Below are positions 4,654-56,640 of a stretch of DNA of 64,000 nucleotides, piece by piece (the stretch's first letter is position 1; each line of letters starts with the position of its first letter). The translations under genes were made by a program, and so were the position numbers. The stretch is from Segatella baroniae DSM 16972 = JCM 13447 (GTDB lineage: Bacteria; Bacteroidota; Bacteroidia; Bacteroidales; Bacteroidaceae): positions 186,001 to 250,000 of the forward strand of contig NZ_AUFQ01000003.1 in NCBI RefSeq assembly GCF_000426585.1, given 5' to 3'. The notes below the pieces were generated by a model. It was not told the DNA's origin, searched no databases, and saw only the letters and a list, made by a program, of their open reading frames with translations.

Positions 4654-4775
4654 GTGCTTTCAGCCGCCGAAAGCTGCCCTTTTGCATTGCAACGGCTGTG
4701 CTTTCAGCCGACGAAAGCAGCCCTTTTACAACGTAACGGCGGTGCTTTCAGGCGACGAAAGCACAGCGGTTGTAA
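4654..4775 (+). repeat. 22/44-bp intergenic repeat array A
   Basis: Two full 44-bp units (4654-4697 and 4698-4741) are followed by a partial third from 4742. Each unit splits into two 22-base halves, one beginning gtgctttcag and containing an inverted repeat (ctttc...gaaag), the other beginning gccctttt. Related arrays with the same 22-base period are at 34335 and 56484. Because 22 is not a multiple of 3, open frames through it (4643-5002, 4654-5016) change composition and are probably not genes. It lies just after the uvrA stop codon. Confidence 0.85.
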
Positions 4776-4809
4776 TCCGGTTCCAAAGCATTCGCGTTTT
4801 TTCAGCCAT

Positions 4810-5016
4810 TTGCTTGACAGGAAGAAGCCCCTATTGCTCCTGTCGTTGGCCTGCGGCCAAGACGCTTCGCCGCTCTACAAGGACAAAGACGTGGTGCTCG
4901 CGTATCTCTGCCAGGACTCCGGCTGCCAGGACTGGCGTTCCATGGCGCCCAAAGACTTTGCCGGAGCGGAAACCAACACGAACGCGGTCATGCAACTCAT
5001 AGACGGTCTGGGATGA
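4810..5016 (+). CDS. Possible small lipoprotein, or remnant of one
   Basis: The frame that passes through array A continues into a stretch that looks like protein: from a TTG at 4810 it reads a basic start, a hydrophobic run (KKPLLLLSLACGQD) with a possible lipobox cysteine, and then about 50 polar residues rich in D and C, ending in MQLIDGLG. No ATG or clear ribosome site precedes it. A perfect 20-base palindrome follows the stop. I do not recognise a family. It could be a real 68-residue lipoprotein, the decayed tail of a longer gene, or chance. Confidence 0.3.
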   Translation: MLDRKKPLLLLSLACGQDASPLYKDKDVVLAYLCQDSGCQDWRSMAPKDFAGAETNTNAVMQLIDGLG

Positions 5017-5018
5017 AA

Positions 5019-5038
5019 CGGCGCACGGCCGTGCGCCG
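5019..5038 (+). terminator. Perfect GC-rich palindrome, possible terminator
   Basis: The 20 bases from 5019 to 5038 are their own reverse complement, centred on acggccgt. It lies two bases after the small ORF stop and 110 bases before lon. No T run follows, so termination is uncertain; a protein-binding site is another possibility. Confidence 0.4.
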
Positions 5039-5106
5039 CATTACCGCAATCAAGGCCCTTTTGCGTTAAACTTCCAAATTCCTGCTGATATTACGCTGAT
5101 TCTGTG

Positions 5107-5114
5107 TAACTTTG
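5107..5114 (+). promoter_or_regulatory. Bacteroidota -7 box upstream of lon
   Basis: TAACTTTG matches the TAnnTTTG -7 consensus and lies 35 bases before the lon start. No TTTG is seen at the expected -33 position. Confidence 0.45.
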
Positions 5115-5149
5115 CACCATCCTATATAGATGTGTATTTTAAATAGAAA

Positions 5150-7621
5150 ATGAGTAACAAAAGTAATGCTACCATACAGATGATCGCCGATTTCGAGGGC
5201 GACATCACAAGCTTGTTCAATGAAGAAAAAGGAGGAGTGCTTCCCATTCTCGCAACAAGAAACATCGTTTTGTTTCCAGGAGTGATGACCCCCATCCTGA
5301 TAGGGCGAGAAGCCAGCCTCAACCTTTTGGAGCACATGTCACACCATCCCACCAATTTCGCCATATTCTCCCAAAAGGATGAAGATGTCAGCAGTCCGAG
5401 CCTCGACGACCTTTATCCGATCGGTGTCTTTGCCCGATTGATCAAAGTGATCGACATGCCCGGCCCCAACCGTCAGGTGACGGCCATCGTACAGGGACTG
5501 GGGCGGTGCGAACTCCATGGATTGGTGCAGGAGCAGCCGTTCCTGTCGGGCACGGTCTATCCGGCACCGGAGGAAGACGTGACGATGGACAACAAGATTT
5601 GCAAGACGGCATACAAAGACCTGCTGGCTTCCACAAGCCGGTACATCTCCGACAACGACGAAATCCCCAACGAGCTGCAATTCTCGCTGGACAGCATATC
5701 GCAGAACCTCATCAAGGTGAACTACATCTGCTGCAACCTGCCGTTTTCCGTCAAGGACAAGTTCAACATGCTCAGGCAGAACTCGATACTTGAGCGCATC
5801 TATGAGACGTTGAAGGCTCTCCATCGCGAACAGCAGTATGTGGAAATCAAGAAGGACATCCGTTCCAAGACGCGGGAAGACCTGGACGAGCAGCAGCGCG
5901 AGTATTTCCTCCAACAACAAATCAAGAACATAAAGGAGGAGCTGGGCAACGGCAACGGAACCTCGGAGAAGATGGAGCTGGAAGAAAAGGCGCAAGGCAA
6001 GAAGTGGCCGGCTGAAATCGAACAGGTGTTCCGCAAGGAACTCGACAAGCTGGACTTGTTCAATCCGCAAAGTCCGGACTACAGCACGCAGGTCAACTAT
6101 CTTCAAAACCTAGTTAGCCTGCCGTGGGGTGAATATTCCAAGGACGATCTAAGCCTCAAGCGGGCCAAGCACATCCTCGACCACGACCACTATGGCATGG
6201 AAAAGGTGAAGGAACGCATCCTCGAATACATTGCGGTGTTGAGCCTCCGCGGCGACCTCAAGTCGCCCATCATCTGTCTCTATGGCCCTCCGGGCGTAGG
6301 AAAGACGAGTCTTGGCAAAAGCATTGCCGGCGCCCTGAAGCGCAAGTATGTGCGCATCTCGCTGGGCGGCCTGCACGACGAGTCGGAAATCAGAGGACAC
6401 CGCCGGACATATATCGGCGCCATGCCGGGCCGCATCATCAAGAGTCTGCTGAAGGCCGGAACGAGCAATCCCGTCTTCATTCTTGACGAGATAGACAAGG
6501 TGAGCCAGAACACCATCAACGGCGATCCGTCGTCGGCACTCTTGGAAGTGCTGGACCCGGAGCAGAACAACGCCTTCCACGATAACTTCCTGGACGTGGA
6601 CTACGACCTCTCCAAAGTGCTGTTCATCGCCACGGCCAATGACCTGGGCAACATCCCCCGCCCGCTTCTCGACCGCATGGAAATCATCGAGGTCAGCGGC
6701 TATATCACAGAGGAGAAACTGGAAATAGCCAAACGCCACCTGGTTCCGAAGGAGATAAAGAACACCGGACTTGACAAGGAGACGGAAAAGATCAAGTTCA
6801 CAAAGGCTGCCTTGGAAAAAATCATCGAGCAGTACACCCGCGAGAGTGGCGTCCGACAGCTCGAAAAGCAAATCAACAAGGCGCTCCGCAAGCTGGCTTT
6901 CATGAAGCAGATGGATGGCGAACTGAAGACATCCACCATCACACCGACGGAGATAGAGACGCTCTTGGGCAATCCTCCGTTCTACAGGGACATCTATCAG
7001 GGCAACGACTATGCGGGTGTCGTCACGGGACTGGCATGGACAAGCGTCGGTGGAGAGATTCTCTTCATAGAGACCAGCTTGAGCAAAGGCAAGAATGGCA
7101 AACTCACGCTGACGGGCAACCTGGGAGATGTCATGAAGGAGAGCGCCGTCATTGCCCTGGAATACGTGAAGGCGCATGTCGACTCCTTGGAAATCGACCA
7201 TCGCATCTTCGACAATTGGAACCTCCATATCCATGTGCCGGAAGGAGCCACGCCCAAAGACGGGCCGTCGGCGGGTATCACCATCGCGACGAGCATCGCC
7301 TCCGCCTTGACGCAGCGCAAGGTCAGGAAGAACACTGCCATGACAGGCGAGATCACCTTGCGCGGCAAGGTTCTTCCCGTCGGCGGTATCAAGGAGAAGA
7401 TACTGGCCGCCAAGAGGGCCGGAATCACCGACATCGTGATGTGCAAGGAAAACAGAAAGGATGTCGACGAGATTCCGGAGGCATATCGCAAGGGAGTGGA
7501 ATTCCATTATGTGGAAAACGTTCAGGAAGTATGGGACTTCGCCCTTACGGACGAGAAAGTGAAATCTCCTATCGATTTCATCATAGAGAAGTCTGACCAA
7601 GAAACAGAGCATACGAAATGA
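5150..7621 (+). CDS. lon: ATP-dependent Lon protease
   Basis: This 823-residue LonA-type protease degrades misfolded and regulatory proteins in the cytoplasm. It has an N-terminal substrate domain ([17 protein letters not shown]), a coiled region with [16 protein letters not shown], an AAA+ module with Walker [10 protein letters not shown] (about residue 378) and Walker B FILDEIDK, and a C-terminal serine protease domain. The catalytic serine lies in [10 protein letters not shown] (about residue 707) and the lysine in VGGIKEK (about residue 748), so the Ser-Lys dyad is intact. Its stop overlaps the tgt start by four bases, so lon, tgt and lptG form one operon. Confidence 0.97.
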
Positions 7622-8745
7622 AGTTTGAGCTACAGCATACGGACAACGCAAGCGACGCGAGAACAGGGCTCATCACAACCGACCATGGTCAGATAAAGAC
7701 GCCTGTTTTCATGCCCGTGGGCACCTGTGGGACGGTCAAAGGCGTGCATTTCAGCGAATTGCGCCAACAGGTTGAAGCTCAAATCATACTTGGCAACACC
7801 TACCACTTGTATCTGCGCCCCGGCCTTGAAGTGCTGCGGAAGGCCGGCGGACTGCATCGGTTCAACAGCTGGGACCGCCCCATCCTGACGGACAGCGGCG
7901 GCTTTCAGGTGTTTTCGCTTTCCGGCATAAGGAAACTGAAGGAAGAGGGATGCGAGTTCAGGTCGCATATCGACGGATCGAAGCATTTCTTCACGCCGGA
8001 GAACGTCATGGACACCGAGCGCGTCATCGGCGCCGACATCATGATGGCCTTCGACGAATGCCCCCCGGGACAAAGCGATTACGGCTATGCCAAGAACAGC
8101 CTCAAACTGACGCAGAGATGGCTGGACCGCTGCATCAAGCGTTGCGCTGAAACGGAACCGCTCTATGGATACCATCAGAGTTTGTTCCCCATCGTTCAGG
8201 GGTGCACGTACAAAGACTTGCGGCAGGAGGCTGCGAAATTTGTTGCGGACAAGGGAGCCGACGGCAATGCCATCGGCGGACTTGCCGTAGGTGAACCGAC
8301 GGAGGTGATGTACGACATGATAGAGGTGGTTAACGGGATTTTGCCCAAGGACAAGCCGCGCTATCTCATGGGTGTAGGAACTCCTCAGAACATTCTGGAA
8401 GCCATCGAGCGGGGCGTTGACATGTTCGATTGCGTCATGCCGACACGCAACGGCCGCAACGCCATGCTCTTCACCTACAACGGCACGATGAACATGCGCA
8501 ACAAGAAATGGGAGGAGGACTTCTCACCGATCGACCCGGACGGCTGCGACATCGACCTGGTCCATACGAAGGCCTATCTGCACCATTTGTTCAAGGCGCA
8601 GGAGTATCTGGCCCTGCAGATTGCCAGCATCCACAACCTGGCTTTCTATCTACGGCTTGTGACGGACGCACGGCAACACATCGAGGCCGGAGACTTCGTA
8701 CAATGGAAGGCTTCCATCATCGACCAGCTCGGACAAAGAATCTAA
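7618..8745 (+). CDS. tgt: tRNA-guanine transglycosylase (queuine/preQ1 insertion)
   Basis: This 375-residue enzyme exchanges guanine-34 of GUN-anticodon tRNAs for the queuosine precursor preQ1. It has the Tgt signatures TDSGGFQVFSL, FDECPPGQ, GGLAVGEPTEVM and FDCVMPTRNGRN. The usual structural zinc motif (CxCxxC followed by a distant H) is degenerate: the region reads DPDGCDIDLVHTKAYLHHL, with a single cysteine, while the histidine in ASIHNL remains. From memory this loss is shared by other Bacteroidota Tgt proteins. Its ATG overlaps the lon stop (ATGA), indicating translational coupling; lptG starts 10 bases after its stop. Confidence 0.95.
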   Translation: MKFELQHTDNASDARTGLITTDHGQIKTPVFMPVGTCGTVKGVHFSELRQQVEAQIILGNTYHLYLRPGLEVLRKAGGLHRFNSWDRPILTDSGGFQVFSLSGIRKLKEEGCEFRSHIDGSKHFFTPENVMDTERVIGADIMMAFDECPPGQSDYGYAKNSLKLTQRWLDRCIKRCAETEPLYGYHQSLFPIVQGCTYKDLRQEAAKFVADKGADGNAIGGLAVGEPTEVMYDMIEVVNGILPKDKPRYLMGVGTPQNILEAIERGVDMFDCVMPTRNGRNAMLFTYNGTMNMRNKKWEEDFSPIDPDGCDIDLVHTKAYLHHLFKAQEYLALQIASIHNLAFYLRLVTDARQHIEAGDFVQWKASIIDQLGQRI

Positions 8746-8755
8746 ACAACTCCAC

Positions 8756-10030
8756 ATGAAACCATTGCGCCAAATCAGAAGACATCGCCGGTTTTACAGG
8801 GTAATGCGCCATCTTTCGCAGCACCCTGCATGGCTTCATCGCCTCTTCGGCTTCATCCACCGGCACACAGGTTGGTTGCGGAGTTTCCTCAAGTGGCTGG
8901 GAACAAGGATGGGATGGATGAAATATGTCAATCCGTTCCACTATGTTAAACGGCTGGATGGATACATCATCAAGAAGTTCATTGGCACCTACGTCTATTC
9001 CATTCTTCTGATCATCAGCATATCCATCGTCTTTGACGTGAATGAGAACCTGGCGAAATTCACGCAGTACCATGCGCCCCTCAAGGCTATCGTCGTGGAC
9101 TATTACCTCAACTTCGTCCCCTACTTTGCCAATCTGTTCAGTCCGCTGTTCGTGTTCATTGCCGTCATATTCTTCACGTCGAAGTTGGCCGGCAATTCGG
9201 AAATCATATCCATGCTGGCGGCCGGCGTGTCGTTCAAGAGGCTCATGAGGCCCTATATGATTTCGTGCGTCCTCATTTCAGCCCTTTCCTTCTATCTCAG
9301 CGCGTTCGTCATCCCCCATGGAACCGTCATCAAGCAGAATTTCGAATCCATGTATAAGAACAAAAGGAAGAATACGGCCGCCGACAACGTACAGCTGCAA
9401 GTGGCGAAGGGAACCATCGCCTACATCCAGCACTACGACAACAATATGAAGAAAGGCTATGGCTTTTCGCTCGATAAGTTTGAAAACAAGAAGCTGGTGA
9501 GCCACATGACGGCCATGGAGATTCAATATGACACCATCGCCGACTCAAAATATCATTGGACGGCCAGCAACTGGAAGATACGCGAGCTCAGGGGACTTAG
9601 AGAGCACATCACTTCAGGGGCGACGAAAGACACCCTCATCCTCATGGAACCTACCGACCTCGTCTACTCGAAAGGACAGCAGGAAACTTTCACGAGTCCG
9701 GAACTGCGTGCCTATATATCGAAACAGATTGACCGAGGGTCGGGGCATGTGGTCCAATACCAAGTGGAATACCACAAACGCATCGCTTCGAGCTTCGCTT
9801 CGTTCATCTTGACCATCATCGGCCTTTCACTCTCGGCCAAGAAACGCAAAGGCGGCATGGGCCTTTACTTGGGCATAGGCTTGGCCCTGAGCTTCATCTA
9901 TATCATGCTTCAAACGGTTTCTGCGACATTCGCAATCAATGCGGGCGCACCGCCATTATTGGCAGCCTGGGTGCCGAACATCATTTTTGCGGTGGTTGCA
10001 TATTTCTGTTATCGACAGGCACCCAATTAA
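8756..10030 (+). CDS. LptF/LptG (YjgP/YjgQ) family permease
   Basis: This 424-residue inner-membrane protein belongs to the permease family of the Lpt machine, which extracts lipopolysaccharide from the inner membrane. It shows the typical start LDGYIIKKFIGTYVYSI with a first membrane helix, two more helices around FVPYFANLFSPLFVFIAVIFF, a conserved LAAGVSFKRLMRPY loop, a large periplasmic part and three C-terminal helices. The first 60 or so residues, before KRLDGYII, form an extra basic, Trp- and His-rich stretch that I do not know from the family. An internal start such as the Met before KYVNPFHYVKRLDG is possible. It is the last gene of the lon-tgt-lptG operon. Confidence 0.88.
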   Translation: MKPLRQIRRHRRFYRVMRHLSQHPAWLHRLFGFIHRHTGWLRSFLKWLGTRMGWMKYVNPFHYVKRLDGYIIKKFIGTYVYSILLIISISIVFDVNENLAKFTQYHAPLKAIVVDYYLNFVPYFANLFSPLFVFIAVIFFTSKLAGNSEIISMLAAGVSFKRLMRPYMISCVLISALSFYLSAFVIPHGTVIKQNFESMYKNKRKNTAADNVQLQVAKGTIAYIQHYDNNMKKGYGFSLDKFENKKLVSHMTAMEIQYDTIADSKYHWTASNWKIRELRGLREHITSGATKDTLILMEPTDLVYSKGQQETFTSPELRAYISKQIDRGSGHVVQYQVEYHKRIASSFASFILTIIGLSLSAKKRKGGMGLYLGIGLALSFIYIMLQTVSATFAINAGAPPLLAAWVPNIIFAVVAYFCYRQAPN

Positions 10031-10127
10031 GAAAGTGTTAATCAGCAATCTACAAGAAAGTAGATATTCAACTCAAACCAAGGCACAGGAATCAACTTCC
10101 GGCCTGAATTAAAGTAATAAAGAAAAT

Positions 10128-11804
10128 ATGTATTTTGACGAATTGAAATTAAACGACAACGTGCTCGACGCACTTTATGATATGCGTTTCGACGCTTGCA
10201 CGCCGGTGCAAGAGAAGTGCATCCCTGAAATCTTGAAAGGGAACGACGTTTTGGGCGTGGCCCAGACGGGAACGGGCAAGACCGCGGCTTATCTGCTGCC
10301 CATATTGAGCAAGCTGGACGATGGAGGCTATCCGAAATCCTCCATCAATTGTGTCATCATGAGCCCTACGCGCGAGTTGGCGCAGCAAATAGACCAGGCC
10401 ATGCAAGGTTTTGGCTACTATCTGAATGGCGTGAGCAGCGTGGCTGTCTATGGGGGCAACGACGGCAACAGGTACGATCAGGAATTGAAAAGTCTGCAAC
10501 TGGGTGCCGACGTAGTCATCGCGACCCCCGGCAGATTCATCTCCCACATGAGTCTCGGCAATGTAGACATGAGCAAAGTCTCGTTCTTTGTGTTGGACGA
10601 GGCGGACAGAATGCTCGACATGGGCTTTTCAGAGGATATCATGAAGATAGCATCAAAGCTGCCCAAGACATGCCAGACCATCATGTTCTCCGCCACCATG
10701 CCTCCCAAGATTGAGGAGTTGGCCAAGACGCTGTTGAAGAACCCGGTGGAGATAAAGCTGGCCGTCAGCAAACCTGCCGAGAAAATCAAGCAGAAGGCAT
10801 ACGTGTGCTATGAGACCCAAAAGATTGGAATCATCAAAGACATATTCAAAAGCGGTGACTTGAAGCGTGTCATCATCTTCTGTGGAAGCAAGCTCAAAGT
10901 GAAGCAGGTGAACGGCGCCTTGCAGAAGCGCAACATCAAATGCGGAGAAATGCACTCCGACTTGGAGCAGGCGCAACGAGACGACATCATGTTCAAGTTC
11001 AAGAGCGGTCAATTGGATGTGCTTGTTGCGACGGACATCGTGGCACGAGGCATTGATATTGACGACATAGCCATGGTCATCAACTATGATGTTCCGCATG
11101 ACGCAGAGGATTACGTACACAGGATTGGCCGAACGGCCAGAGCCGACAGGGACGGAGTGGCGATAACTTTCGTCAGCGACGATGACATGTTCTACTTCAA
11201 GCAGATTGAGAAGTTTTTGGACAAGGAGGTTGACAAGTTGGAATTGCCGGAAGGATTGGGCGAAGGCCCGGAGTATGTCGTTTCGGGTAGACCCAAGAAG
11301 TCGGGAAGCGCCAAACAGCGTCGCAGAAAAGACCGGGAACAAACCGCCCACAAGCGCAAGCCGAAGCAGAATGCAGGCAATGACAAGCGCAGAGGGGAAG
11401 AAGGACAAAAGAGCAAAGACCAAGAGGCGACTTCGGAGCAGCCGGCGGCAGTAGGTCCGAACGGAGACACTCCCGGCAACAAGCGTCGCCAGAGTCGTTC
11501 CCGCCAGCGCAGTCCCAAGGAGGAAAGGCCGGAAACTGCAACCGCCAATGCGACAGGGACGGCAAGAAGGGAGAGGAATGCCACCGACAACGCAAACAGA
11601 AGGAATCCCAAATACAACAGGGACGGCAAGAAATATAACGCGCAACGCAAACCAAATGACAATGCGGGAACAGGAAGGAGGCCGAAAGGCAACATGCGTA
11701 CACCTAACGCTTCGCCGAAGCCCACAAATAATTCCCGACATGTGGCGCAGCAAGAGAACGGTATCAAGAAGTTCTTCAAGCGCATATTCGGCCTAAAGAA
11801 GTAA
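10128..11804 (+). CDS. DEAD-box RNA helicase with long basic tail
   Basis: This 558-residue ATP-dependent RNA helicase resembles RhlE/CsdA-type proteins. The order of motifs is: Q-motif region FDACTPVQEKCIP, motif I AQTGTGKTAAY, PTRELAQQ, TPGRF, motif II VLDEADRMLDMGF, motif III SAT, ATDIVARGIDI, and motif VI HRIGRTARA. The core ends near residue 370. The remaining 150 or so residues are low complexity, rich in K, R, N, Q and G, as in RNA-binding tails of this family, and end with a short conserved-looking KKFFKRIFGL. It probably acts in ribosome assembly or RNA turnover; the exact role cannot be read from sequence. Confidence 0.93.
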   Translation: MYFDELKLNDNVLDALYDMRFDACTPVQEKCIPEILKGNDVLGVAQTGTGKTAAYLLPILSKLDDGGYPKSSINCVIMSPTRELAQQIDQAMQGFGYYLNGVSSVAVYGGNDGNRYDQELKSLQLGADVVIATPGRFISHMSLGNVDMSKVSFFVLDEADRMLDMGFSEDIMKIASKLPKTCQTIMFSATMPPKIEELAKTLLKNPVEIKLAVSKPAEKIKQKAYVCYETQKIGIIKDIFKSGDLKRVIIFCGSKLKVKQVNGALQKRNIKCGEMHSDLEQAQRDDIMFKFKSGQLDVLVATDIVARGIDIDDIAMVINYDVPHDAEDYVHRIGRTARADRDGVAITFVSDDDMFYFKQIEKFLDKEVDKLELPEGLGEGPEYVVSGRPKKSGSAKQRRRKDREQTAHKRKPKQNAGNDKRRGEEGQKSKDQEATSEQPAAVGPNGDTPGNKRRQSRSRQRSPKEERPETATANATGTARRERNATDNANRRNPKYNRDGKKYNAQRKPNDNAGTGRRPKGNMRTPNASPKPTNNSRHVAQQENGIKKFFKRIFGLKK

Positions 11805-11910
11805 AATATTGCTGTTTGAGGAAACCCTAAAGGCGATATTCAACAAGGCATTGCGTGAAGGTTTGACAACATTCAATCCTGTGCATAGCCTTAGGATGTA
11901 TGCAGAAAAT

Positions 11911-11953: not shown

Positions 11954-11963
11954 TATTTCATGT

Positions 11964-12009: not shown

Positions 12010-12148
12010 TATTTTAATGAACCGATTTAAGGGTAAGCGTTCGGTTTCCAACCTGTCCCCAAAACAGATAAGCCAGTGCCCCTTTGAGAAACGGTCCCCG
12101 ACATACCACTTTCAACAATGGGATCGTATTCGCCTCTTCCAACAAGCC

Positions 12149-33206: not shown

Positions 33207-33794
33207 TTACAACTGTATAGTAATTGCTTGCAAAACAGATAAAAAAGAAGCCATTGGAACTCCTTTTCGAATCTTCTCTATTGATCGAAATAAAAGATTA
33301 CGAGCTGATTGTACGTGGATGTCCATTATTTCTGAAATTTCGTCAAAACTCATTTCATGTACAAATCTAAGGTAAATGATTTCCTTTTGACGACCACTGA
33401 GTCCTCTCATAATATGATGCACTTCCTCAGAGAGCCCCTGCTGCTCATTAGAAAAGACCTCTTCATCAATCGTATAATTCAAATTAAAATCATAATTCTC
33501 AAGTGAGCGAAGTTTAGAATTGCGAAGGTGTTGATTATAAATTTGATTCTTTAAAGCACGAAACAAAAAAGGACGCAACTTTGTGTTGTCCTGTAATTCA
33601 ATTTTTTTTTGATATAACTTGACGAACAAATCCTGAATCGCATCTTCTACCATTTTGTCATCCCCCCCTACACGATGACCATACGCCAACAAATCATCAA
33701 AGAACAGAAGGTAGAGACGAGAAAATGCCAATTCATTTCCATCCAGAAACTCTATCCAAAGCGTAGTAATTTGTTGTTGTTTGCTAAACATCAT
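33207..33794 (-). CDS. ECF-type RNA polymerase sigma factor of the PUL
   Basis: This 195-residue protein has sigma region 2 (FSRLYLLFFDDLLAYGHRV, DAIQDLFVKLYQK, LRPFLFRALKNQIYNQHLR) and region 4 (LSGRQKEIIYLRFVHEMSFDEISEIMDIHVQSARNLLFRSI). It is the Bacteroidota-type ECF sigma that usually pairs with FecR and an STN-SusC. It would direct transcription of the PUL after release from FecR, encoded 105 bases downstream. Confidence 0.95.
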   Translation of the reverse strand: MMFSKQQQITTLWIEFLDGNELAFSRLYLLFFDDLLAYGHRVGGDDKMVEDAIQDLFVKLYQKKIELQDNTKLRPFLFRALKNQIYNQHLRNSKLRSLENYDFNLNYTIDEEVFSNEQQGLSEEVHHIMRGLSGRQKEIIYLRFVHEMSFDEISEIMDIHVQSARNLLFRSIEKIRKGVPMASFLSVLQAITIQL

Positions 33795-34147: not shown

Positions 34148-34334
34148 CCCCCACTTCATGTTTTGTCGAAACCTAAGGACACACATTCAGAAGGTGTTCA
34201 AGGGTATTGCCCCAAGGGGGGGAGAATTTGAGACAAATCAATATGTGGCCAAATGTTCAAGCACCTCTCCAAGTTCTCCAATCATATCGAGATTTTGTCG
34301 GACGGCACATGGCCAAGTGGGTTGCGACAGGATT

Positions 34335-34440
34335 GCTTTTCGGAGGAGAAGGGACTGCTTTTACAACGCGAAAGCAGCCTTTTTGAAGGCTAAAAGGATA
34401 ACCGTTACAAGCCAAAAGGGCAGCTTTGGCTTCGACTACC
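34335..34440. repeat. 22-bp intergenic repeat array B
   Basis: Four consecutive 22-base units (34335-34356, 34357-34378, 34379-34400, 34401-34422) and the start of a fifth share a c/g-ctttt start and an aaagg- or aaagc-type end. The copies are more diverged than in arrays A and C but keep the same period. It lies between the IS982 relic and the tRNA-Ser terminator. The rest of this gap (33795-33918 and 34148-34334) shows nothing I can name. Confidence 0.65.
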
Positions 34441-34573: not shown

Positions 34574-34661
34574 CGGAAGATGAGGGATTCAAACCCCCGA
34601 TACCCGGAAAGGGTATACCGGATTTCGAGTCCAGCGCATTCGGTCACTCTGCCAATCTTCC
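34574..34661 (-). tRNA. tRNA-Ser (anticodon CGA)
   Basis: The minus strand folds as a class II tRNA of 88 bases. The acceptor stem GGAAGAT pairs with ATCTTCC, the anticodon stem encloses the loop CTCGAAA with anticodon CGA (serine, UCG codons), a long variable arm (TATACCCTTTCCGGGTATC) is present, and the T loop reads TTTGAATC. CCA is not encoded. It marks the right edge of the AT-rich block. Confidence 0.95.
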
Positions 34662-49148: not shown

Positions 49149-50309
49149 TTACTTAATACGATTTGCTCTGCGCGTGATATTTCTATCTACAACATAGTAA
49201 TCTATGAGGGGCGCAAACATATTCCCAAAGAATATCGCAAGCATCATGCCCTCGGGATATCCGGGGTTCATAACTCTTACGATAATAGCCATCGCCCCTA
49301 TCAAAAATCCATATATGTATTTGCCAGTTTCTGTTCGTGCAGAGGTTACCGGATCTGTAGCCATGAAAACGGCGCCAAAGCAGAAACCACCTAAAAAAAG
49401 ATGTTCGTACCACGATATGGATGTCATCCCCATGGCTTTAAAAACAAGCGCCAACGCAATGCCGCCGGCAAACACGCTTCCCATTGTCTTCCATGATGCA
49501 ATGCCAGTCCACAATAATATAATGGCACCGATTGCAATGGCAATGACGGAAGTCTCTCCAATAGAGCCAGGTATGAGTCCTATGACCATATCAGAGATGC
49601 CTGCATTCGGTGCAAGTCCCTGCCCTATTTGACTGAGTGGAGTTGCCATTGTAAAGCCATCAGCGAGATTGTTGCCCAATCCCAGGAGTGAGTTTTGCGC
49701 AACCCACACCATATCTCCTGTCATTTTTGACGAATAAGAGAAAAACAAGAACATACGTGCCCCGACGGCGACATTGAAGATGTTCATCCCTGTACCTCCG
49801 AAAATCTCTTTACAAAAAATCACGGCAAAAGCACAAGCTAGCGCGAGCATCCACAACGGCGTCGTGACAGGTATGATTAAAGGAATGATAATGCCAGACA
49901 CCAAATAGCCTTCCTGTATTTCCTCGTGCTTCCATTGAGCCCAAGCAAATTCTATCCCCAAGCCAACGATGTAGCTGACTAAGATTTTAGGCAATACGGC
50001 TAAAAAGCCATAGCAAAAGACTTCCAGAAAAGAAGCACTTGCCAATGTGCCGGCTGCCAGATAGTTTTGATAGCCAACATTATACATGCCGAAAAACATG
50101 GCAGGCAAAAGTGCTATTACGACCATGCTCATGATACGCTTTGAATCGATGGCGTCATGGATGCTGGAGCCACTCTTCGAAGTTGTGTTCGGCACGTAAA
50201 GAAATGTTTCCAACCCATCAAATACGCTCTCAAATACGTGAAGTTTTCCTCCCTTTTGAAAGTTTGGTTTAATTTTATCGAGATATTTTCTTAAACTCAT
50301 AGTCGTCAT
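49149..50309 (-). CDS. nqrB: Na+-translocating NADH:quinone reductase subunit B
   Basis: This 386-residue subunit has about ten membrane helices and carries the second covalent FMN and the ubiquinone/sodium pathway. It shows GGTGMNIFNVAVGARMFLFF and, at the FMN site, PGSIGETSVIAIAIGA. The start overlaps the nqrA stop by four bases. All helices are uninterrupted. Confidence 0.96.
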   Translation of the reverse strand: MTTMSLRKYLDKIKPNFQKGGKLHVFESVFDGLETFLYVPNTTSKSGSSIHDAIDSKRIMSMVVIALLPAMFFGMYNVGYQNYLAAGTLASASFLEVFCYGFLAVLPKILVSYIVGLGIEFAWAQWKHEEIQEGYLVSGIIIPLIIPVTTPLWMLALACAFAVIFCKEIFGGTGMNIFNVAVGARMFLFFSYSSKMTGDMVWVAQNSLLGLGNNLADGFTMATPLSQIGQGLAPNAGISDMVIGLIPGSIGETSVIAIAIGAIILLWTGIASWKTMGSVFAGGIALALVFKAMGMTSISWYEHLFLGGFCFGAVFMATDPVTSARTETGKYIYGFLIGAMAIIVRVMNPGYPEGMMLAIFFGNMFAPLIDYYVVDRNITRRANRIK

Positions 50310-51658
50310 GCGTTTTCTTTTCGTAATGTGTTCAGTCCCTCGCGAACAATCTTTTGCAGTGGCATTTTCGAACTATCCACAAATTCGGCCAGGGCGAAGT
50401 CTTCCGGACTTACTTCATAAATCCCCAGCTGCTCTTGCCTGTCGATGTTACCGGCAATAATGGACTTTATAAGATACTCTGCATAAACATCCATAGGGAG
50501 CACGCTGTCGTATTCTCCGCTCATAATCATGTGACGCTTACCGCCCTTGACACGTGCGTCCAAATCATATTCCTTGTTTTTGCCAAACAGCCATGAAAAA
50601 TAACTGCGTGAAACCGAGAAATTATTTAATCGGGGACTGATCCATCCTAAGATTTCATTTACATTGTCTCCCTCTGGAATACATGTGATTTCTGAAGTAT
50701 GGGCTCCTACATAGTCTTCGAGGGAACTAACGTTTCCTGTCAACGGGTTGCCGTTAATGATTCGAATATGTTCACTATGCAACAATCGCCCTTGCAATAT
50801 TGTGGAGAATGGTGCGCCGACAATGGTTTCGACATAGCAAGGATGGATAACTTCACTCCCTCCAATGGCGATGCGTTTTTGTAAATCGACCTTCCCCGTC
50901 AAAAATAGTCGACCAAAGAAAATCACAGACGCAGGATCCACTGTCCAAACAACTTCACCTTTATTAATAGGAAGAATATGATTGATTTGAACTCCAACGT
51001 TTCCAGCTGGACAGGGACCGTCGAAAGCATTGATTTCAACGTCTTTTGCGTTGAGCAATGCCGTGCTCTTTTGCTCAACGCTGACGCTCAAATAAACCTT
51101 GCCCATCGTGCTCAAGGCCGTCAGGCCTGTTTGAAACGCCTCCTCATTGCCTTCAAGCTCCGTTTCAAAGTCTGCTGCCAACGGCATGTCCCTAAATGCA
51201 GAAACAAAAATAGCCTTTGGCTCTGTTGTAGGGTTTGTGGAAATCGCGTATGGCAACTGATTGACATAACCAAACAAACCGGCTTCCAACAATGCTTCCT
51301 TGACTTTCTCACCACTCAAAGAAGAAACGTCCTTTTTCCCAAAGTCTATATAACCTTGCTCACTGTCAGTCTGCACTTTAATACAGAGGACTTTTCGTCT
51401 ATCGCCCCTTATGATGGCTGTAACTTTACCACTAACAGGTGAGGCGAACTTTACTTCAGGAAAATTCTTGTTGACAAACAATGCACTGCCAGCCTGTACT
51501 TGCTCTCCCTCTTTAACGACCAGTTTAGGAACGACCCCCTCAAAAGCAGCAGGCACCAAAGCCACTTCCGCCGGCAGTTCGGTCGAAATCTTTTCCTTGG
51601 TAGCCTTGCCTTTAAGGTTTAAGTTTAAGCCTTTACGTAACTTAATGACATTCACCAT
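50306..51658 (-). CDS. nqrA: Na+-translocating NADH:quinone reductase subunit A
   Basis: This 450-residue peripheral subunit on the cytoplasmic face takes part in quinone reduction. It begins IKLRKGLNLNLKGKA and shows NqrA segments such as VKEGEQVQAGSALFVNK, FASPVSGKVTAI, CPAGNVGVQINHI and IGGSEVIHPCYV. It is the first gene of the nqrABCDEF operon. Confidence 0.96.
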   Translation of the reverse strand: MVNVIKLRKGLNLNLKGKATKEKISTELPAEVALVPAAFEGVVPKLVVKEGEQVQAGSALFVNKNFPEVKFASPVSGKVTAIIRGDRRKVLCIKVQTDSEQGYIDFGKKDVSSLSGEKVKEALLEAGLFGYVNQLPYAISTNPTTEPKAIFVSAFRDMPLAADFETELEGNEEAFQTGLTALSTMGKVYLSVSVEQKSTALLNAKDVEINAFDGPCPAGNVGVQINHILPINKGEVVWTVDPASVIFFGRLFLTGKVDLQKRIAIGGSEVIHPCYVETIVGAPFSTILQGRLLHSEHIRIINGNPLTGNVSSLEDYVGAHTSEITCIPEGDNVNEILGWISPRLNNFSVSRSYFSWLFGKNKEYDLDARVKGGKRHMIMSGEYDSVLPMDVYAEYLIKSIIAGNIDRQEQLGIYEVSPEDFALAEFVDSSKMPLQKIVREGLNTLRKENA

Positions 51659-51751
51659 AGTTTAGAAACTACATTTATTTAAATACTTCAAAATAATCAA
51701 ACCATCTTTTTTGACATAAGACCCAAGATACATATTGCCCGAAATCTCGTG

Positions 51752-51759
51752 CAAATATA
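51752..51759 (-). promoter_or_regulatory. -7 box of the nqr operon promoter
   Basis: The minus strand reads TATATTTG, matching TAnnTTTG, 93 bases before the nqrA start. The -33 position has TTTT instead of TTTG. Confidence 0.5.
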
Positions 51760-51800
51760 ATCAAAATTAAATGTATGTAAAAATAAAACAACTTTTTATT

Positions 51801-51831
51801 TTAGTATTCACCATTTAAAATGTAATTTTGT
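51801..51831 (+). promoter_or_regulatory. Probable tamB promoter
   Basis: TTTA (51801-51804), 19 bases, then TAATTTTG (51824-51831). The -7 box is exact and the -33 box has one mismatch. It is divergent from the nqr promoter. Confidence 0.5.
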
Positions 51832-51888
51832 AATACAAATTCAGAACGATTTCAGCTGAAAAGGATAGCTCATATATTAAATGGCTTT

Positions 51889-54800
51889 GTGTGGACTTTG
51901 GTATCAATCTACATCGCCTGTATTCTATTACTGAACATTCCAGTAGTACAGAATGCCATTGCTCATACGGCAAGTACTGCTTTAGAAAAGAAAATAGGAG
52001 CAAGAGTCGTCCTTAAACGTGTGGATTTGGGAATCTTCAACCGCGTGATTATCGACGGATTCGAAGTTTACGACCGCCATCAAAAGCCCCTGTTGAAGTC
52101 AAGCCGCTTGTCGGTAAAACTCTCTCTCTACGACCTGCTTTGTGGAAAGATAAATATAACATCCGCGCAATTTTTTAATATGTATGCAAATATATATAAA
52201 GAAACGGCGACTTCCGACTTGAACTGTCAGTTCATTATCGATGCGTTTAAATCGGATGAAGATGCGACAGAGACTTCCCTGAATTTCGACATAAAATCTC
52301 TGGTGGTACGAAACAGCGGGATAAAATTCGACAATTGGCATTCACCCGTTGACCGTACCCAACGGAAACTGGATTTCAACCATATAGACATTCGTCATCT
52401 AAACGCCCATCTGAGCTTCGCTGTCCAAAAGGATGGCAGTATCTCGGCCTCGCTCAAGAATCTTTCGTTTCAAGAACATTCAGGGCTTGTTGTCAAGGAC
52501 CTCCATTTTGGGCTGTCTGCCAAAGCTGGGCATTGGCAGGTTCGGGATTTTACCTTGCGGCTGCCCGAATCCTTTGTCAAACTATCAGATTTCTCTCTGT
52601 ACCATTCCACCACCGACCGCTCTTGGCATGCCATATCATTAAATAATAATGTGCAACTGAATGGTAAGGTTTTCCTACCGGACATGGGCTGTCTGATTCC
52701 AAGTTTGAAACAGGTTCGGTATCAATTCAACTTCTCCTCAAAATTTGGTTTCAGCAACCAAACGGCCACTATCCTAAACCTTTCACTCCATAGTCGACAA
52801 ATGGGAGTGAGGCTGGCTGTTTCGGGAATGGTGAATTTCCATAAAAGGCAGAACAGCCCACACGCCGATATCAAATTGCATCTGCTTGATGTCAGACAGC
52901 AGGGGATTGACGAATTGATTGCGCTCGGATGGCTTCCCCTGCCTTTCAAAAGGCTTCATGCCCTCACGCTGCGTGGGCAAGCCAAGGGCCATGTGCATGA
53001 TTTTTCGATAAACGGCTCCTTGTCGACTGATCTTGGGAAAGCAGATGTCAACTTCTCCAAAATCGGTACGCATGTGACAGGACAGATTACCGACGGACAT
53101 TTCGATTTAGGAAGGCTGTTTGCCAAACCCGCATTAGGTTCTGTCAATGTGCAGGCATTCGTGAAAGGCGACTTGTCAAGGGGCAAACTTGATTTAAAAG
53201 GGCAAGGAAGTTTGTCCAACTTGGTTTACAACGGATACACTTATCGAAGTTTGGATTTTAACGGACGCTATCTCAAGAGTGCCTCCGATACGCATCTGGA
53301 GGCCTCTCTCGATATGGACGATCCGAATGGATCCATCAAGACAAGTGGAACTTATCTGACGAAAAAAAACATACCGACAATTGATGCAACCATTCAGGTC
53401 AAGCGATTCTGTCCGTCAGTCTTGAGATTGACGAACCGATGGGGCGATAGTCGTTTTGACGCAGATATAGCAGCCAATTTCTCTGGACGTTCACTGAACG
53501 AGGCTTTGGGATTTCTGAGGATATCCGATTTCTCCATGACAGGGCAAAAAGGGGATTTTGCTCTAAAAAGCCTGCACGTAGATATTGGAAAAGAGCAGGG
53601 CAAGAAAAATGTTTCTGTGACAAGCGACTTTGGAACTCTGAATCTTCGGGGCAACTTTGATTACACCCAATTGCCTTTTACGTTAAGCAACCTCGTCAAG
53701 AGCTACCTGCCCTCCATGCCCGGCCTGTCGGCGACAAAGACAGAGATGGGTGCAGATAATGATTTTAGCATAACGGCGCATTTGAACAATTCCGATTTCA
53801 TATCAAAGTTTTTCACCATCCCCGTGAACATTTTTCAGCCGGCCGACTTGCAAGGTTATGTGCACGGCCGCCAGAAACAGGTTGCGTTGAATGTCAGTCT
53901 TCCACATTTTGAGTATAATGGCAATAGATTCAAAAACGGACACATTGTCGTTTCCTCACCTAATGACTCTCTGAAGATGGTCACCTCTTTCATTAGGGAA
54001 GAGGAAGAAGGCAAAGAACTTTCCGTAGCCATCAAAGCAGCGGCAGTCAAGGATTATCTGTTGTCCACAATAGAGTTCGACAACGGCAGGACAAAGCGGT
54101 TGCGAGGAGCCCTCAACGCACAGACATCCTTCTTCTTCAATGAGAAGAAACAAGCCACCGCACACGTGAAGGTATTGCCGTCGCACATATTTGTGAGCGA
54201 TTCAACGTGGAATATCGAACCCTGCGACATTGTTTATTCAAAAGACAATTTGATTGTCGACCATTTCGCCGTTGAGCACAACAAACAACACATCATTGTT
54301 TCCGGGCTGGCTTCGCGAAACAAATCGGACAAGCTCATACTGGATTTGAAGGAGGTCGATGTCGGTTACTTGCTGAATCTACTCAATTTTCACGCCGTTT
54401 CTTTCGGCGGAGAGGCAACGGGTGTCGCAAGTATATCTTCGATTTTTCACCATCCTGAGATGGAAGCGCAATTGAGCGTTGACAAATTCAAGTTCCAAGA
54501 AGGCAATCTGGGCCTCCTTCGGGCAAAAGCAGTTTATGACAGCAACGAAGGCAAGATCAATATAGACGCCGTTGCAGAACAAGATGGCGACCGAAAGACT
54601 CTGATCAACGGATTCGTCTCGCCTTTACACGACAATATAGACCTGACCATTCGAGCCCAAAAGACCAACATCAAATTTCTGAAAAGCTTCTGCGGCAGTT
54701 TCATGGACGACATCAATGCTTCCGCAGTGGGAGCAGTCCGACTTGCCGGCCCGCTGGGTGCGATGAACTTGACAGGAGAGTTGGTAGCGGACGGAACGAT

Positions 54801-56274
54801 AAGAATCATTCCGACCAACACCACATATCGGTTAGCCAACGACACGATAAGGATGATTCCCGACCATATTATCCTATCCAGAGACTCCGTATACGACAGG
54901 AATGGCAATTTGGGGATTGTCAATGGCGTTTTGCGACATCAGAATTTGACCCAATTAACATACGATTTGAATATAACGGCACGGAATCTGCTTTCTTACG
55001 ACACCCACGAATTTGGCGACAACACTTTCTACGGGACCGCCTACACATCAGGCACCTGCCATGTCTACGAGCACAATGGAGAAATATCCTTGGACATCGA
55101 CGTAACTCCTGAGCGGGGGTCGCAGTTCGTTTACAATACCGCAAGCCCTGGCGGAGTCGGCAACCAAGAGTTCATTCATTGGAGGTCGCCCCTCCCCCCC
55201 ACGCTCCAGCAACATGACAGTTTATCTGTCGGTCATGTTGCCGATTCGGACGAGAAGGAGGACACTCCCTCGAATATGCGAATCAATTTCCTCATCAACA
55301 TGACGCCCTATGCCTCACTGAAGCTGTTGATGGATGACAAAACAGGAGATTATATATCTTTATATGGAAATGGCGTGCTTCGTGCCAGCTATTTCAACAA
55401 GGGTCGCTTTGAGATGTATGGCAATTATGTCATAGACCATGGAACATACAAACTCACCATACAGAACATTGTCAAAAAAGAATTTCTCTTCAATCAAGGT
55501 GGAACCATCGCCTTCGGAGGCGACCCTTATGCGGCAGCACTCGACCTAAAGGCTCAATACACGGTTCCTGCGGTAAGTTTAGCAGACCTGAACATGGGAC
55601 AGAGCTTTACGACCAACAATGTGAAGGTGAATTGCTTTATGAACATTTCCGGAACACCGGCCAATCCCAGGTTGGATTTCTCTCTCGACATCCCAACGCT
55701 CAACAACGAGGCGAAACAAATGGTCTATAGCGTTATCAACAGCGAAAACGAGATGAATCAACAGGTGTTGTATCTGTTGGCTGTCGGAAGATTCTATTCG
55801 CAGAACAACCAAAATGCCGAAGACATGCCGAGAGGGATGCAGCAGAGTCAGACCAGTCTCGCCATGCAGAGCATTCTGAGCGGAACGGTCAGCCAACAAA
55901 TCAACAATGTACTTTCATCTCTCACGAAGAATGACAATTGGAATTTTGGCGCCAACATATCCACGGGCAACGAGGGGTGGAACAATGCCGAGTATGAGGG
56001 ATTGCTTTCCGGTCGCCTCCTCAACAACAGATTGTTGGTCAACGGCCAGTTCGGCTATCGGGACAACCCGGCAACCTCCACCAGCTTCATTGGCGATTTC
56101 GAGGCCAAATACCTGCTTACGCCGAATGGAAACTTTTCCATTCGCGTGTACAACCAGTCCAATGACCGATATTTCACCCGCAACAGCTTGAACACACAGG
56201 GTATAGGGCTTGTCATTAAAAAGGAATTCAACGGCTGGAAGCACCTTTTCAAGAAGAAGAAAAAGAAGAAGTGA
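51889..56274 (+). CDS. tamB-like: TamB-family (DUF490) translocation/assembly protein
   Basis: This protein of about 1461 residues is anchored by an N-terminal membrane helix (LVSIYIACILLLNIPVV), has a very long beta-strand-rich periplasmic part with AsmA/DUF748-like repeats, and ends in the TamB domain: MRINFLINMTPYASLKLLMD, YGNGVLRASYFNKGRFEMYG, FNQGGTIAFGGDPYAAALDL, ISGTPANPRLDFSLDIPTLN and QMVYSVINSENEMNQQ. Such proteins bridge inner and outer membranes in lipid transport and outer-membrane assembly. No ATG lies near the start; GTG at 51889 is the first usual start codon, and the frame is open back to 51835 with a basic stretch (LKRIAH) that could belong to the protein. No TamA/BamA gene is adjacent. 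Confidence 0.92.
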   Translation: MWTLVSIYIACILLLNIPVVQNAIAHTASTALEKKIGARVVLKRVDLGIFNRVIIDGFEVYDRHQKPLLKSSRLSVKLSLYDLLCGKINITSAQFFNMYANIYKETATSDLNCQFIIDAFKSDEDATETSLNFDIKSLVVRNSGIKFDNWHSPVDRTQRKLDFNHIDIRHLNAHLSFAVQKDGSISASLKNLSFQEHSGLVVKDLHFGLSAKAGHWQVRDFTLRLPESFVKLSDFSLYHSTTDRSWHAISLNNNVQLNGKVFLPDMGCLIPSLKQVRYQFNFSSKFGFSNQTATILNLSLHSRQMGVRLAVSGMVNFHKRQNSPHADIKLHLLDVRQQGIDELIALGWLPLPFKRLHALTLRGQAKGHVHDFSINGSLSTDLGKADVNFSKIGTHVTGQITDGHFDLGRLFAKPALGSVNVQAFVKGDLSRGKLDLKGQGSLSNLVYNGYTYRSLDFNGRYLKSASDTHLEASLDMDDPNGSIKTSGTYLTKKNIPTIDATIQVKRFCPSVLRLTNRWGDSRFDADIAANFSGRSLNEALGFLRISDFSMTGQKGDFALKSLHVDIGKEQGKKNVSVTSDFGTLNLRGNFDYTQLPFTLSNLVKSYLPSMPGLSATKTEMGADNDFSITAHLNNSDFISKFFTIPVNIFQPADLQGYVHGRQKQVALNVSLPHFEYNGNRFKNGHIVVSSPNDSLKMVTSFIREEEEGKELSVAIKAAAVKDYLLSTIEFDNGRTKRLRGALNAQTSFFFNEKKQATAHVKVLPSHIFVSDSTWNIEPCDIVYSKDNLIVDHFAVEHNKQHIIVSGLASRNKSDKLILDLKEVDVGYLLNLLNFHAVSFGGEATGVASISSIFHHPEMEAQLSVDKFKFQEGNLGLLRAKAVYDSNEGKINIDAVAEQDGDRKTLINGFVSPLHDNIDLTIRAQKTNIKFLKSFCGSFMDDINASAVGAVRLAGPLGAMNLTGELVADGTIRIIPTNTTYRLANDTIRMIPDHIILSRDSVYDRNGNLGIVNGVLRHQNLTQLTYDLNITARNLLSYDTHEFGDNTFYGTAYTSGTCHVYEHNGEISLDIDVTPERGSQFVYNTASPGGVGNQEFIHWRSPLPPTLQQHDSLSVGHVADSDEKEDTPSNMRINFLINMTPYASLKLLMDDKTGDYISLYGNGVLRASYFNKGRFEMYGNYVIDHGTYKLTIQNIVKKEFLFNQGGTIAFGGDPYAAALDLKAQYTVPAVSLADLNMGQSFTTNNVKVNCFMNISGTPANPRLDFSLDIPTLNNEAKQMVYSVINSENEMNQQVLYLLAVGRFYSQNNQNAEDMPRGMQQSQTSLAMQSILSGTVSQQINNVLSSLTKNDNWNFGANISTGNEGWNNAEYEGLLSGRLLNNRLLVNGQFGYRDNPATSTSFIGDFEAKYLLTPNGNFSIRVYNQSNDRYFTRNSLNTQGIGLVIKKEFNGWKHLFKKKKKKK

Positions 56275-56483
56275 CAGCCTGAAGCGCTCCCCAGAAGACG
56301 TGCGCGATTGTCGTTGGATTATTTTGGACTCCATCCACTGCTCCTGAAACTCTTTACCTTGTTCATCAGACCATTCACATGAAATAAGGTGTTGCCTTCA
56401 TTTATTCCCTTTTCAAATCCGACAGCCATACTCTACCCTTGAAAGTTTCTCTGCGAATAATTCATCAGCGAAATCATTTGTCC

Positions 56484-56640
56484 GAGCGGAAAGGCTGCGA
56501 TTGCGTGATGAAAGCTGTGCTTCGGGCGAGCGGAAAGGCTGCGATTGTGTGATGGAAGCTGTGCTTTTAGCCCATGAAAGCAGTGCTTTGGGCTCCTGAA
56601 AGCAGTGCTTTGGGCGGACGAAAAGGCAGCGGTTGGAAAT
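56484..56640. repeat. 22/44-bp intergenic repeat array C
   Basis: Two 44-bp units (56484-56527 and 56528-56571, beginning gagcggaaaggctgcgattg) are followed by two 22-bp half units (56572-56593 and 56594-56615, each with tgaaagcagtgctttgggc) and a diverged end. The half units correspond to the second half of the 44-bp unit. It lies in the 449-base gap between tamB and the rhodanese gene; 56275-56483 holds nothing else I can name. Confidence 0.85.

What the first reader, a model, noticed from the sequence alone, without database searches (positions are those of the whole stretch)
4654..56640. Dispersed intergenic arrays with a 22-bp unit and 44-bp higher-order unit
Three intergenic sites, 4654-4775, 34335-34440 and 56484-56640, hold tandem copies of a related 22-base unit. 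In the first and third, alternate 22-mers are different, giving an exact 44-base repeat. Many units contain a short inverted repeat (ctttc...gaaag or gaaagcagtgcttt). 22 bases is close to two helical turns, so copies would face the same side of DNA, as for a protein-binding array. The period is not a multiple of 3 and the arrays only occur between genes, next to gene ends. I do not know a described family with this structure; automatic annotation would call the open frames hypothetical proteins.
Basis: partly seen in the sequence, partly recalled or inferred. Interest (0 to 1): 0.7.

Follow-up and report, generated by a model that had tools for sequence, protein, structure and literature searches.

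The report
Evenly spaced 22-bp chromosome array elements
Chromosomes of many Prevotella-group bacteria carry, in gaps between genes and in four genomes sampled at a median of 9 to 25 thousand bases apart, short rows of mostly four to seven near-palindromic DNA sites set 22 bases (about two helical turns) apart, which are likely landing platforms for a still unidentified protein predicted to help organise the chromosome.

Summary
The three arrays are real, not chance, and belong to a genome-wide family: 60 arrays of at least 3 units in the 864 kb examined of this 3.13-Mb genome, none on reversed sequence. The unit is a near-palindromic 15-mer (AAAG-N5-CTTT) plus a nearly free 7-bp spacer; 263 of 271 steps are exactly 22 bp. 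The 44-bp order is local to sites 1 and 3. A three-unit pattern hits 38 of 199 other same-genus genomes, with species-specific cores and often a preferred unit number (4 in two MAGs; 5 in 7 of 8 Prevotella histicola arrays seen). Arrays sit between genes, regularly spaced (medians 9-25 kb in four genomes); their gene neighbours are not conserved between species. RNA hairpins, target-site duplications, RAYT transposases and Rfam families were tested and do not explain them. I infer that each array is a platform on which dimers of an unidentified DNA-binding protein assemble side by side, and that the regularly placed platforms organise the chromosome. The binder was not found and there are no bench data. 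I put the protein-binding reading near 75%, the chromosome-organising role near 50%. Ten searches of open-licence papers found no description.

The parts
4647..4771 (.). Array 1: six 22-bp units (15-bp sites starting 4647, 4669, 4691, 4713, 4735, 4757), 5 bp after the stop codon of uvrA and before lon; alternate units alike, giving the local 44-bp order
   Evidence: flanking genes UvrA and Lon by Pfam; an array stands at the uvrA 3' end in relative G012 too
34326..34428 (.). Array 2: five units (sites starting 34326, 34348, 34370, 34392, 34414), between a sigma-factor gene (33207-33794, -) and a tRNA gene (34574-34661, -)
   Evidence: sigma factor by Pfam; tRNA by Rfam
56488..56634 (.). Array 3: seven units (sites starting 56488, 56510, 56532, 56554, 56576, 56598, 56620), between a tamB-like gene and a rhodanese-domain gene; the first four units carry the local 44-bp order
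   Evidence: flanking genes by Pfam; an array stands before the same rhodanese gene in G012

Best explanation
Each array is a row of near-palindromic 15-bp sites locked to a 22-bp (about two-turn) step, which likely is the assembly platform of an unidentified sequence-specific DNA-binding protein, and the platforms, placed along the chromosome at regular distances (medians 9-25 kb), are predicted to organise or partition the chromosome rather than to control particular genes. Shown by computation: the site (AAAG and CTTT arms, species-specific core), the rigid step (22 bp; 21 in one species), a preferred unit number in several species, dyad symmetry of the whole 4-unit element in one species, intergenic placement, regular spacing in four genomes, and turnover of positions between species. 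Inferred: that dimers bind side by side on one face of the DNA and wrap or bridge it, that the core drifts together with the protein, and that the function depends on distance along the chromosome. Unknown: the protein.
For: Rigid lattice: 263 of 271 steps exactly 22 bp although 199 of 274 spacers are distinct. Neighbouring units are hardly more alike (0.535) than units of different arrays (0.481), so the step is not a by-product of fresh duplication. Column-wise palindrome without base-pair covariation at the variable core positions (z -5.9 and -3.1). Same layout with other cores in other species. Preferred unit number: 4 in 28 of 35 (G063) and 37 of 47 (G102) arrays; 5 in 7 of 8 P. histicola arrays. 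Dyad symmetry in G063: spacer 1 against reverse complement of spacer 3, r 0.90; against its own reverse complement, 0.30. Spacing: intervals under 5 kb number 3 of 55, 0 of 16, 0 of 30 and 5 of 44 where random intergenic placement gives 14.4, 3.2, 9.4 and 16.2. Neighbour genes not conserved across species: 9 of 53 within 1 kb, about 9.6 expected.
Against: No binder was found and no binding is shown. In this genome the coefficient of variation of the spacing is not significantly low against the length-weighted intergenic null (0.71 against 0.83, P 0.083), only the lack of short intervals is. Unit number varies here (3-19, mode 5 in 24 of 60). Inward polarity of units is significant in three of five species only. 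Some positions do covary weakly: in this genome the outer-arm pairs 1/13 (z 2.7), 1/35 (2.5) and 13/23 (3.8), and in G102 and G010 several outer positions across units up to z 3.2. 160 of 199 other same-genus genomes show no match to the arm pattern (161 of 200, none of them the window's own), so either the system is dispensable or other half-sites escape the pattern.
Confidence: 0.5

Rival explanations
1. The arrays are strong gyrase wrapping sites: A/T runs every 11 bp in phase with the helix let gyrase wrap about 90-150 bp, so that supercoiling is set at regular intervals, as reported for BIME-2 in E. coli.
For: A/T content of the unit has an 11-bp component in all four species examined; predicted bend is above shuffled and random DNA (69, 48, 66 and 57 degrees against 37-43 for random windows) and falls to 30-37 when spacers are lengthened by 5 bp (wedge table recalled). 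E. coli gyrase has a symmetrical 130-bp motif with 10.75-bp GC periodicity and is enriched at BIME-2 (PMC6379681, passages). Convergent gaps are mildly enriched (39 of 150 arrays against 114 of 653 gaps).
Against: The arms are near-invariant in G063 (about 2 bits per position at AAAG/CTTT) and the cores species-specific, more specific than a degenerate gyrase motif. Gyrase is universal in bacteria (recalled) but many same-genus genomes lack the pattern. Only 10-40% of arrays exceed the 95th percentile of random bend.
Confidence: 0.12
2. The arrays are a non-autonomous mobile element family that avoids inserting near an existing copy (target immunity), which would give regular spacing and position turnover.
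For: Positions differ between species and some differ between this genome and G012. A few arrays are near copies: own C2:4838-4926 and 9916-10004, 94% over 89 bp in inverted orientation and confined to the array; G102 C1/C3 and P. bivia C3 pairs share longer stretches that run into one flank. In G063 array-to-array similarity typically ends at about -4 and +86.
Against: No target-site duplication signal in any of four species. Best spacer match to any other array equals the null in this genome (15.7 and 15.7 of 21) and is slightly above it in G063, G102 and P. bivia (15.9/15.1, 14.2/13.8, 13.5/12.7), so most arrays are not recent copies of one another. Y1 transposase absent in 5 of 10 array-bearing genomes. 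A moving element would not be expected to keep 7-bp spacers while changing their letters. Other transposase families were not tested.
Confidence: 0.12
3. The arrays are operators of a transcription factor with a very large regulon.
For: Palindromic dimer-type sites; 37 of 150 placed arrays lie in divergent gaps.
Against: Neighbour genes are not conserved between species beyond chance (9 of 53); 61 of 74 tandem arrays lie nearer the upstream gene's 3' end; regular spacing is not expected of a regulon. Two of the three window arrays do keep their gene neighbour in G012.
Confidence: 0.12
4. The arrays act in RNA, as bidirectional terminators or mRNA-stabilising hairpins.
For: Placement near 3' ends (61 of 74 tandem cases) and mild convergent excess. 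As transcripts they fold better than dinucleotide shuffles (mean z -2.7 to -6.0), as palindromic units must. One terminator-like match at 34355-34377.
Against: No covariation at the variable core pairs; real unit order folds no better than re-ordered and flipped units (mean z 0.14, 0.27, -0.09, -0.35). No terminator-like match at sites 1 and 3, and shuffles give 0.3-0.5 per site. A quarter lie in divergent gaps. A rigid 22-bp step is not needed for hairpins. No Rfam match.
Confidence: 0.07
5. The arrays mark the cell's own DNA, as uptake or self-recognition sequences do.
For: Regular spacing; a 71-kb array-free interval carries conjugative-transposon genes; species-specific cores.
Against: Known uptake marks are single 10-12-mers, often within genes (recalled); these are multi-unit and kept out of genes. 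Absence from foreign DNA was looked at in one element only, and another wide gap (own C2, 238-279 kb) holds ordinary genes in the 10 ORFs checked.
Confidence: 0.05

Closest known systems
REP/BIME elements (RAYT-linked; BIME-2 binds gyrase)
   Same: Palindromic, intergenic, hundreds of copies, regularly spaced units within a cluster, often near 3' ends
   Different: No GTAG/CGTC tag, no Y1 transposase in 5 of 10 array-bearing genomes, rigid 22-bp lattice with usual unit number, regular kilobase spacing
BrickBuilt minisatellite-MITE of Porphyromonas gingivalis
   Same: Bacteroidales; intergenic tandem repeat of similar period, repeat number varies between strains
   Different: 23-nt unit of another sequence (19 copies in ATCC 33277), leader and tail with IS5-like terminal repeats (PMC4596501, passages); here near-palindromic 22-bp unit and no duplication signal
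CdbA sites of Myxococcus xanthus (also GapR, recalled) as nucleoid-organising proteins
   Same: More than 500 chromosomal sites, DNA bending, little effect on transcription (PMC7156744, passages)
   Different: There single direct-repeat motifs, also inside genes; here fixed multi-unit platforms kept out of genes. The protein here is unknown
Gyrase motif and Mu strong gyrase site
   Same: Symmetrical, phased A/T and G/C about every 11 bp over about 90-150 bp
   Different: Gyrase motif is degenerate and 130 bp with 10.75-bp period (PMC6379681, passages); here specific 15-mers with species-specific cores
Plasmid iterons (22-bp in R6K, recalled) and tandem operators of wrapping regulators such as Lrp (recalled)
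   Same: Sites repeated at about two helical turns, which allows cooperative binding
   Different: Iterons mark one origin; Lrp/AsnC proteins occur in 20 of 20 genomes tested with and without arrays
DNA uptake sequences (Neisseria, Haemophilus; recalled)
   Same: Many copies over the chromosome, species-specific
   Different: Single short words, not phased multi-unit arrays

Membership tests
REP/BIME with RAYT | Y1 (RAYT-type) transposase in the genome | tested here: not met
   PF01797 absent in 5 of 10 array-bearing genomes (G012, G102, G063, P. histicola, Marseilla massiliensis) and present in 7 of 10 without the pattern; G063 is 81% complete
REP/BIME with RAYT | GTAG or CGTC tag at one end of the palindrome | tested here: not met
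   Unit consensus is AAAG-N5-CTTT; tag definition from title and abstract start of PMC3733652
REP/BIME with RAYT | Many intergenic palindromic copies | tested here: met
   60 arrays in 864 kb; 153 of 159 arrays in four species outside called genes
BrickBuilt / MITE | BrickBuilt 23-nt repeat consensus | tested here: not met
   Printed consensus in PMC4596501 does not resemble the 22-bp unit (by eye)
BrickBuilt / MITE | Target-site duplication | tested here: not met
   Best flank direct repeat equals the null in four species; old insertions could have lost it
Intrinsic terminator / structured RNA | Base-pair covariation | tested here: not met
   Core pairs z -5.9, -3.1 in this genome, none above 1.8 within units in the other three species; weak positives at some outer positions are told in the report
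Gyrase strong site | Symmetrical helically phased GC/AT over about 130 bp | tested here: inconclusive
   11-bp component and raised predicted bend, dyad symmetry in G063; also a strong 5.5-bp component, and no cleavage data
Nucleoid-organising protein site family | Chromosome-wide sites not tied to particular genes | tested here: met
Nucleoid-organising protein site family | A cognate protein that binds and bends or bridges DNA | not testable with these tools
   Binder unknown; Lrp/AsnC looked at without support
DNA uptake sequence | Raises uptake of own DNA | not testable with these tools
   Only layout could be compared

The most novel reading that the evidence does not exclude
A chromosome ruler: Prevotella-group bacteria lay down a helically phased, dyad-symmetric platform of four to seven dimer sites about every 10-25 kb, on which a dedicated, fast-evolving protein wraps the DNA in a nucleosome-like complex and sets the borders of supercoiling domains; platforms are lost and re-founded at new intergenic places while selection keeps the spacing.
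Probability: 0.33. Interest if true: 0.92.

Novelty: new variant of a known kind. Interest (0 to 1): 0.76.

Why it matters
Bacterial chromosomes are held to be divided into supercoiling domains of about ten kilobases (recalled), but fixed sequence borders are hardly known. A family of sequence-encoded elements at that spacing, in Prevotella-group bacteria including named cultured strains (P. histicola JCM 15637, P. bivia DSM 20514), would make the question directly testable: remove or move one array and map contacts and supercoils. The species-specific cores also offer a natural experiment in co-evolution of a DNA-binding protein with hundreds of sites.

Tried and rejected
Lrp/AsnC proteins as binder: present in 20 of 20 genomes with and without arrays. 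My motif expression could read 8 of the 30 fetched loci. The three readable copies of one paralogue (P. histicola, G102, P. bivia), whose arrays have different cores, share one recognition helix. Dropped as unsupported, not disproved.

Empty-site comparison: four gap pairs between this genome and G012 were aligned, but the intergenic DNA is too diverged to show clean insertions.

44-bp higher-order unit as a general feature: rejected. Rfam: only a tRNA in the window.

Small samples: G164 gave a low-complexity artefact and is not used. G212, G089 and G022 have 3, 5 and 3 arrays in the fetched bases, too few for statistics; for G022 the 21-bp lattice gave 14 units against 5 on reversed sequence.

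A viral-contig scan with the FecR-like window protein found no relative and was of no use.

A second wide gap, own C2 238-279 kb, is not explained by a mobile element: the 10 ORFs checked give ordinary chromosomal families or none; a two-unit group at 256 kb lies in it.

Paper searches (10) listed no description of these arrays. Open-licence papers only. PMC8040213 (structured RNAs in human microbiomes) and PMC10969869 (MITE review) were seen in listings only and not opened; PMC5771137 was read in passages.
Full report
Observation. The three sites hold tandem 22-bp units at the stated places. In register they are 4647-4771 (six units), 34326-34428 (five) and 56488-56634 (seven). A two-unit pattern with up to 2 mismatches hits the window 15 times against a mean of 0.09 in dinucleotide shuffles. 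Sites 1 and 3 show a 44-bp order, which does not hold for this genome's arrays in general.

Scale in the genome. The window is part of a 3.13-Mb assembly of 47 contigs. A two-unit pattern with up to 3 mismatches hits it 306 times forward and 318 reverse, against 7 and 9 for the reversed pattern. I took 40 stretches of 20 kb, so 864 kb with the window. An iterated weight matrix asking for two units 22 bp apart finds 339 units, against 7 on reversed sequence, in 68 groups. Of these, 60 groups have at least 3 units after extension; the 8 with two units are left out of the later counts. The modal number is 5 (24 of 60), range 3-19. On reversed sequence no group of 3 or more units arose in any of four genomes.

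Anatomy. The unit is a 15-mer with AAAG and CTTT arms around five bases, plus a 7-bp spacer. Of 271 steps between successive units 263 are exactly 22 bp, yet 199 of 274 spacers are distinct, and neighbouring units are 0.535 identical against 0.481 for units of different arrays. So the arrays are not fresh tandem duplications; the step is what is kept. The unit is palindromic by column, but its variable core positions do not covary as base pairs would (z -5.9 and -3.1). Results the other way: the arm pair 1/13 has z 2.7, and across units the pairs 1/35 and 13/23 have z 2.5 and 3.8. In the other three species no within-unit pair exceeds z 1.8; across units, some positions reach z 2.4 (G063), 3.2 (G102) and 3.1 (P. 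bivia), mostly in the outer arms. As RNA the arrays fold better than dinucleotide shuffles (mean z -2.7 to -6.0), as palindromes must, but no better than the same units re-ordered and flipped.

Other species. A three-unit pattern with free cores hits 38 of 199 other same-genus genomes, 12 of them at least 20 times, against 3 of 200 for the reversed pattern (single hits may be chance), and 2 of 294 other genomes drawn over the order. The pattern demands AAAG/CTTT arms, so other half-sites would be missed. Cores are species-specific: GCWRYSC-like here, GGTNACC or GATNATC in P. bivia, GCTATGC in G063, GGCNGCC in G102. One species steps by 21 bp. Exact unit pairs number 526 in P. histicola JCM 15637, 264 in Marseilla massiliensis An824, 105 in Xylanibacter rarus, 73 in P. 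bivia DSM 20514, 30 in X. rodentium, 19 in Mediterranea massiliensis, 12 each in Bacteroides xylanisolvens and Leyella stercorea, 10 in B. acidifaciens and 9 in P. ruminicola; reversed controls are 0 in eight of these ten, 1 in P. bivia and 2 in Mediterranea.

Architecture. In G063 28 of 35 arrays and in G102 37 of 47 have exactly four units; of eight P. histicola arrays, seven have five and one four by a strict detector. P. bivia is mixed (3, 6, 5 and 3 arrays of 3, 4, 5 and 7 units). In G063 the 4-unit element has dyad symmetry as a whole: spacer 1 resembles the reverse complement of spacer 3 (r 0.90) but less its own (0.30), and the flanks TTTC and GAAA mirror each other (0.95). In G102 the first figure is 0.86, but there single spacers are near-palindromic too (0.70-0.86), so it says less. 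Held-out tests of inward polarity of units are significant in three of five species (this genome p 0.011, G063 p 0.0007, P. histicola p 0.009) and not in P. bivia and G102.

Placement. With a simple gene caller of my own, 6 of 159 arrays in four species overlap a called gene, while 81-85% of bases are coding; a looser threshold gave 8 of 68 here. Contexts of the 150 that could be placed: 74 tandem, 39 convergent, 37 divergent, against 368, 114 and 171 gaps of 120 bp or more; 61 of 74 tandem cases lie nearer the upstream gene's 3' end. Median intervals are 11.8 kb (this genome), 24.6 kb (P. bivia), 10.7 kb (G063) and 9.2 kb (G102). Against random, length-weighted choice of intergenic gaps, intervals under 5 kb are too few: 3 of 55 (null 14.4), 0 of 16 (3.2, P 0.018), 0 of 30 (9.4) and 5 of 44 (16.2); the other three P are below 1 in 4000. 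The coefficient of variation is low in P. bivia (0.32 against 0.96), G063 (0.53 against 0.89) and G102 (0.40 against 0.84), but not significantly in this genome (0.71 against 0.83, P 0.083). This genome's widest gap, 71 kb, holds TraG, TraM, a relaxase and PcfJ among 10 ORFs tested, so a conjugative transposon, though one tested ORF is an ordinary NADH dehydrogenase subunit. The next gap, 40 kb, shows no such genes.

Turnover. Of 434 genes flanking arrays in other genomes, 53 have an orthologue-like hit in the 864 kb; 9 of these lie within 1 kb of an array here, about 9.6 expected (a few sites are counted twice because some named loci come from the same genomes). In 120 kb of a closer relative, G012 (67-89% identity in aligned blocks), there are five arrays. 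Two stand beside the same genes as window sites 1 and 3 (uvrA 3' end; rhodanese gene), two lie in gaps where this genome has none, one is in unaligned DNA. Two of this genome's arrays in aligned stretches are missing in G012; site 2 lies just outside an aligned block and cannot be judged. Some arrays are near copies of one another, mostly with part of a flank; one pair (own C2) is confined to the array.

Mechanism. A rigid two-turn step with free spacer letters points to recognition of double-stranded DNA by protein dimers on one face. Column symmetry without core covariation is what a dimeric binder leaves and a hairpin does not. A preferred unit number and, in G063, dyad symmetry suggest one defined complex. 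Regular spacing with turnover of sites suggests a function that depends on distance along the chromosome. My best reading is a nucleoid-organising protein on phased platforms. Predicted bending is moderately raised and depends on the step, which leaves gyrase as a possible user; E. coli gyrase has a symmetrical, GC-periodic 130-bp motif (PMC6379681, passages). Shown: sequence, layout and distribution. Inferred: protein, wrapping, domain role.

Known families. REP/BIME: Y1 transposase is absent in 5 of 10 array-bearing genomes, P. histicola among them, and present in 7 of 10 without the pattern; the GTAG/CGTC tags are absent (tags from title and abstract start of PMC3733652; its main text has no Prevotella). 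BrickBuilt of P. gingivalis (PMC4596501, passages) is a 23-nt minisatellite in a MITE with another sequence; no target-duplication signal is seen here. CdbA of Myxococcus (PMC7156744, passages) is the nearest analogue in behaviour. Ten paper searches listed no description of these arrays.

Limits.

Noticed in passing
G000:C1:105474-176817 (L036-L039): The widest array-free interval holds conjugative-transposon genes (TraG, TraM, relaxase, topoisomerase, PcfJ, an N6-methylase/helicase protein) among the 10 ORFs tested.
   Followed up: partly
G000:C4:4.7-4.9 kb, 13.8 kb, 38.9 kb; C2:222 kb: A second, low-complexity repeat (AATGTGAAATGTGAAG-like, short period) adjoins several arrays and is shared between them.
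   Followed up: no
G063:C5:5949-6294 and C1:51262-51608: A larger repeat of about 347 bp, 82% identical, contains an array in its middle.
   Followed up: no
G392 (L335, L338) and G302 (L336, L339): Genomes of two other families of the order carry similar lattices with AAAAGT/ACTTTT arms, period 22 in G392 and 21 in G302.
   Followed up: no
P. bivia G010:C3:298944-299281 and 312780-313117: Two arrays share at least 338 bp at 98.8% identity, running past the array on one side only: a recent duplication.
   Followed up: no
window 34574-34661 (-): A tRNA gene lies 146 bp right of array 2.
   Followed up: no
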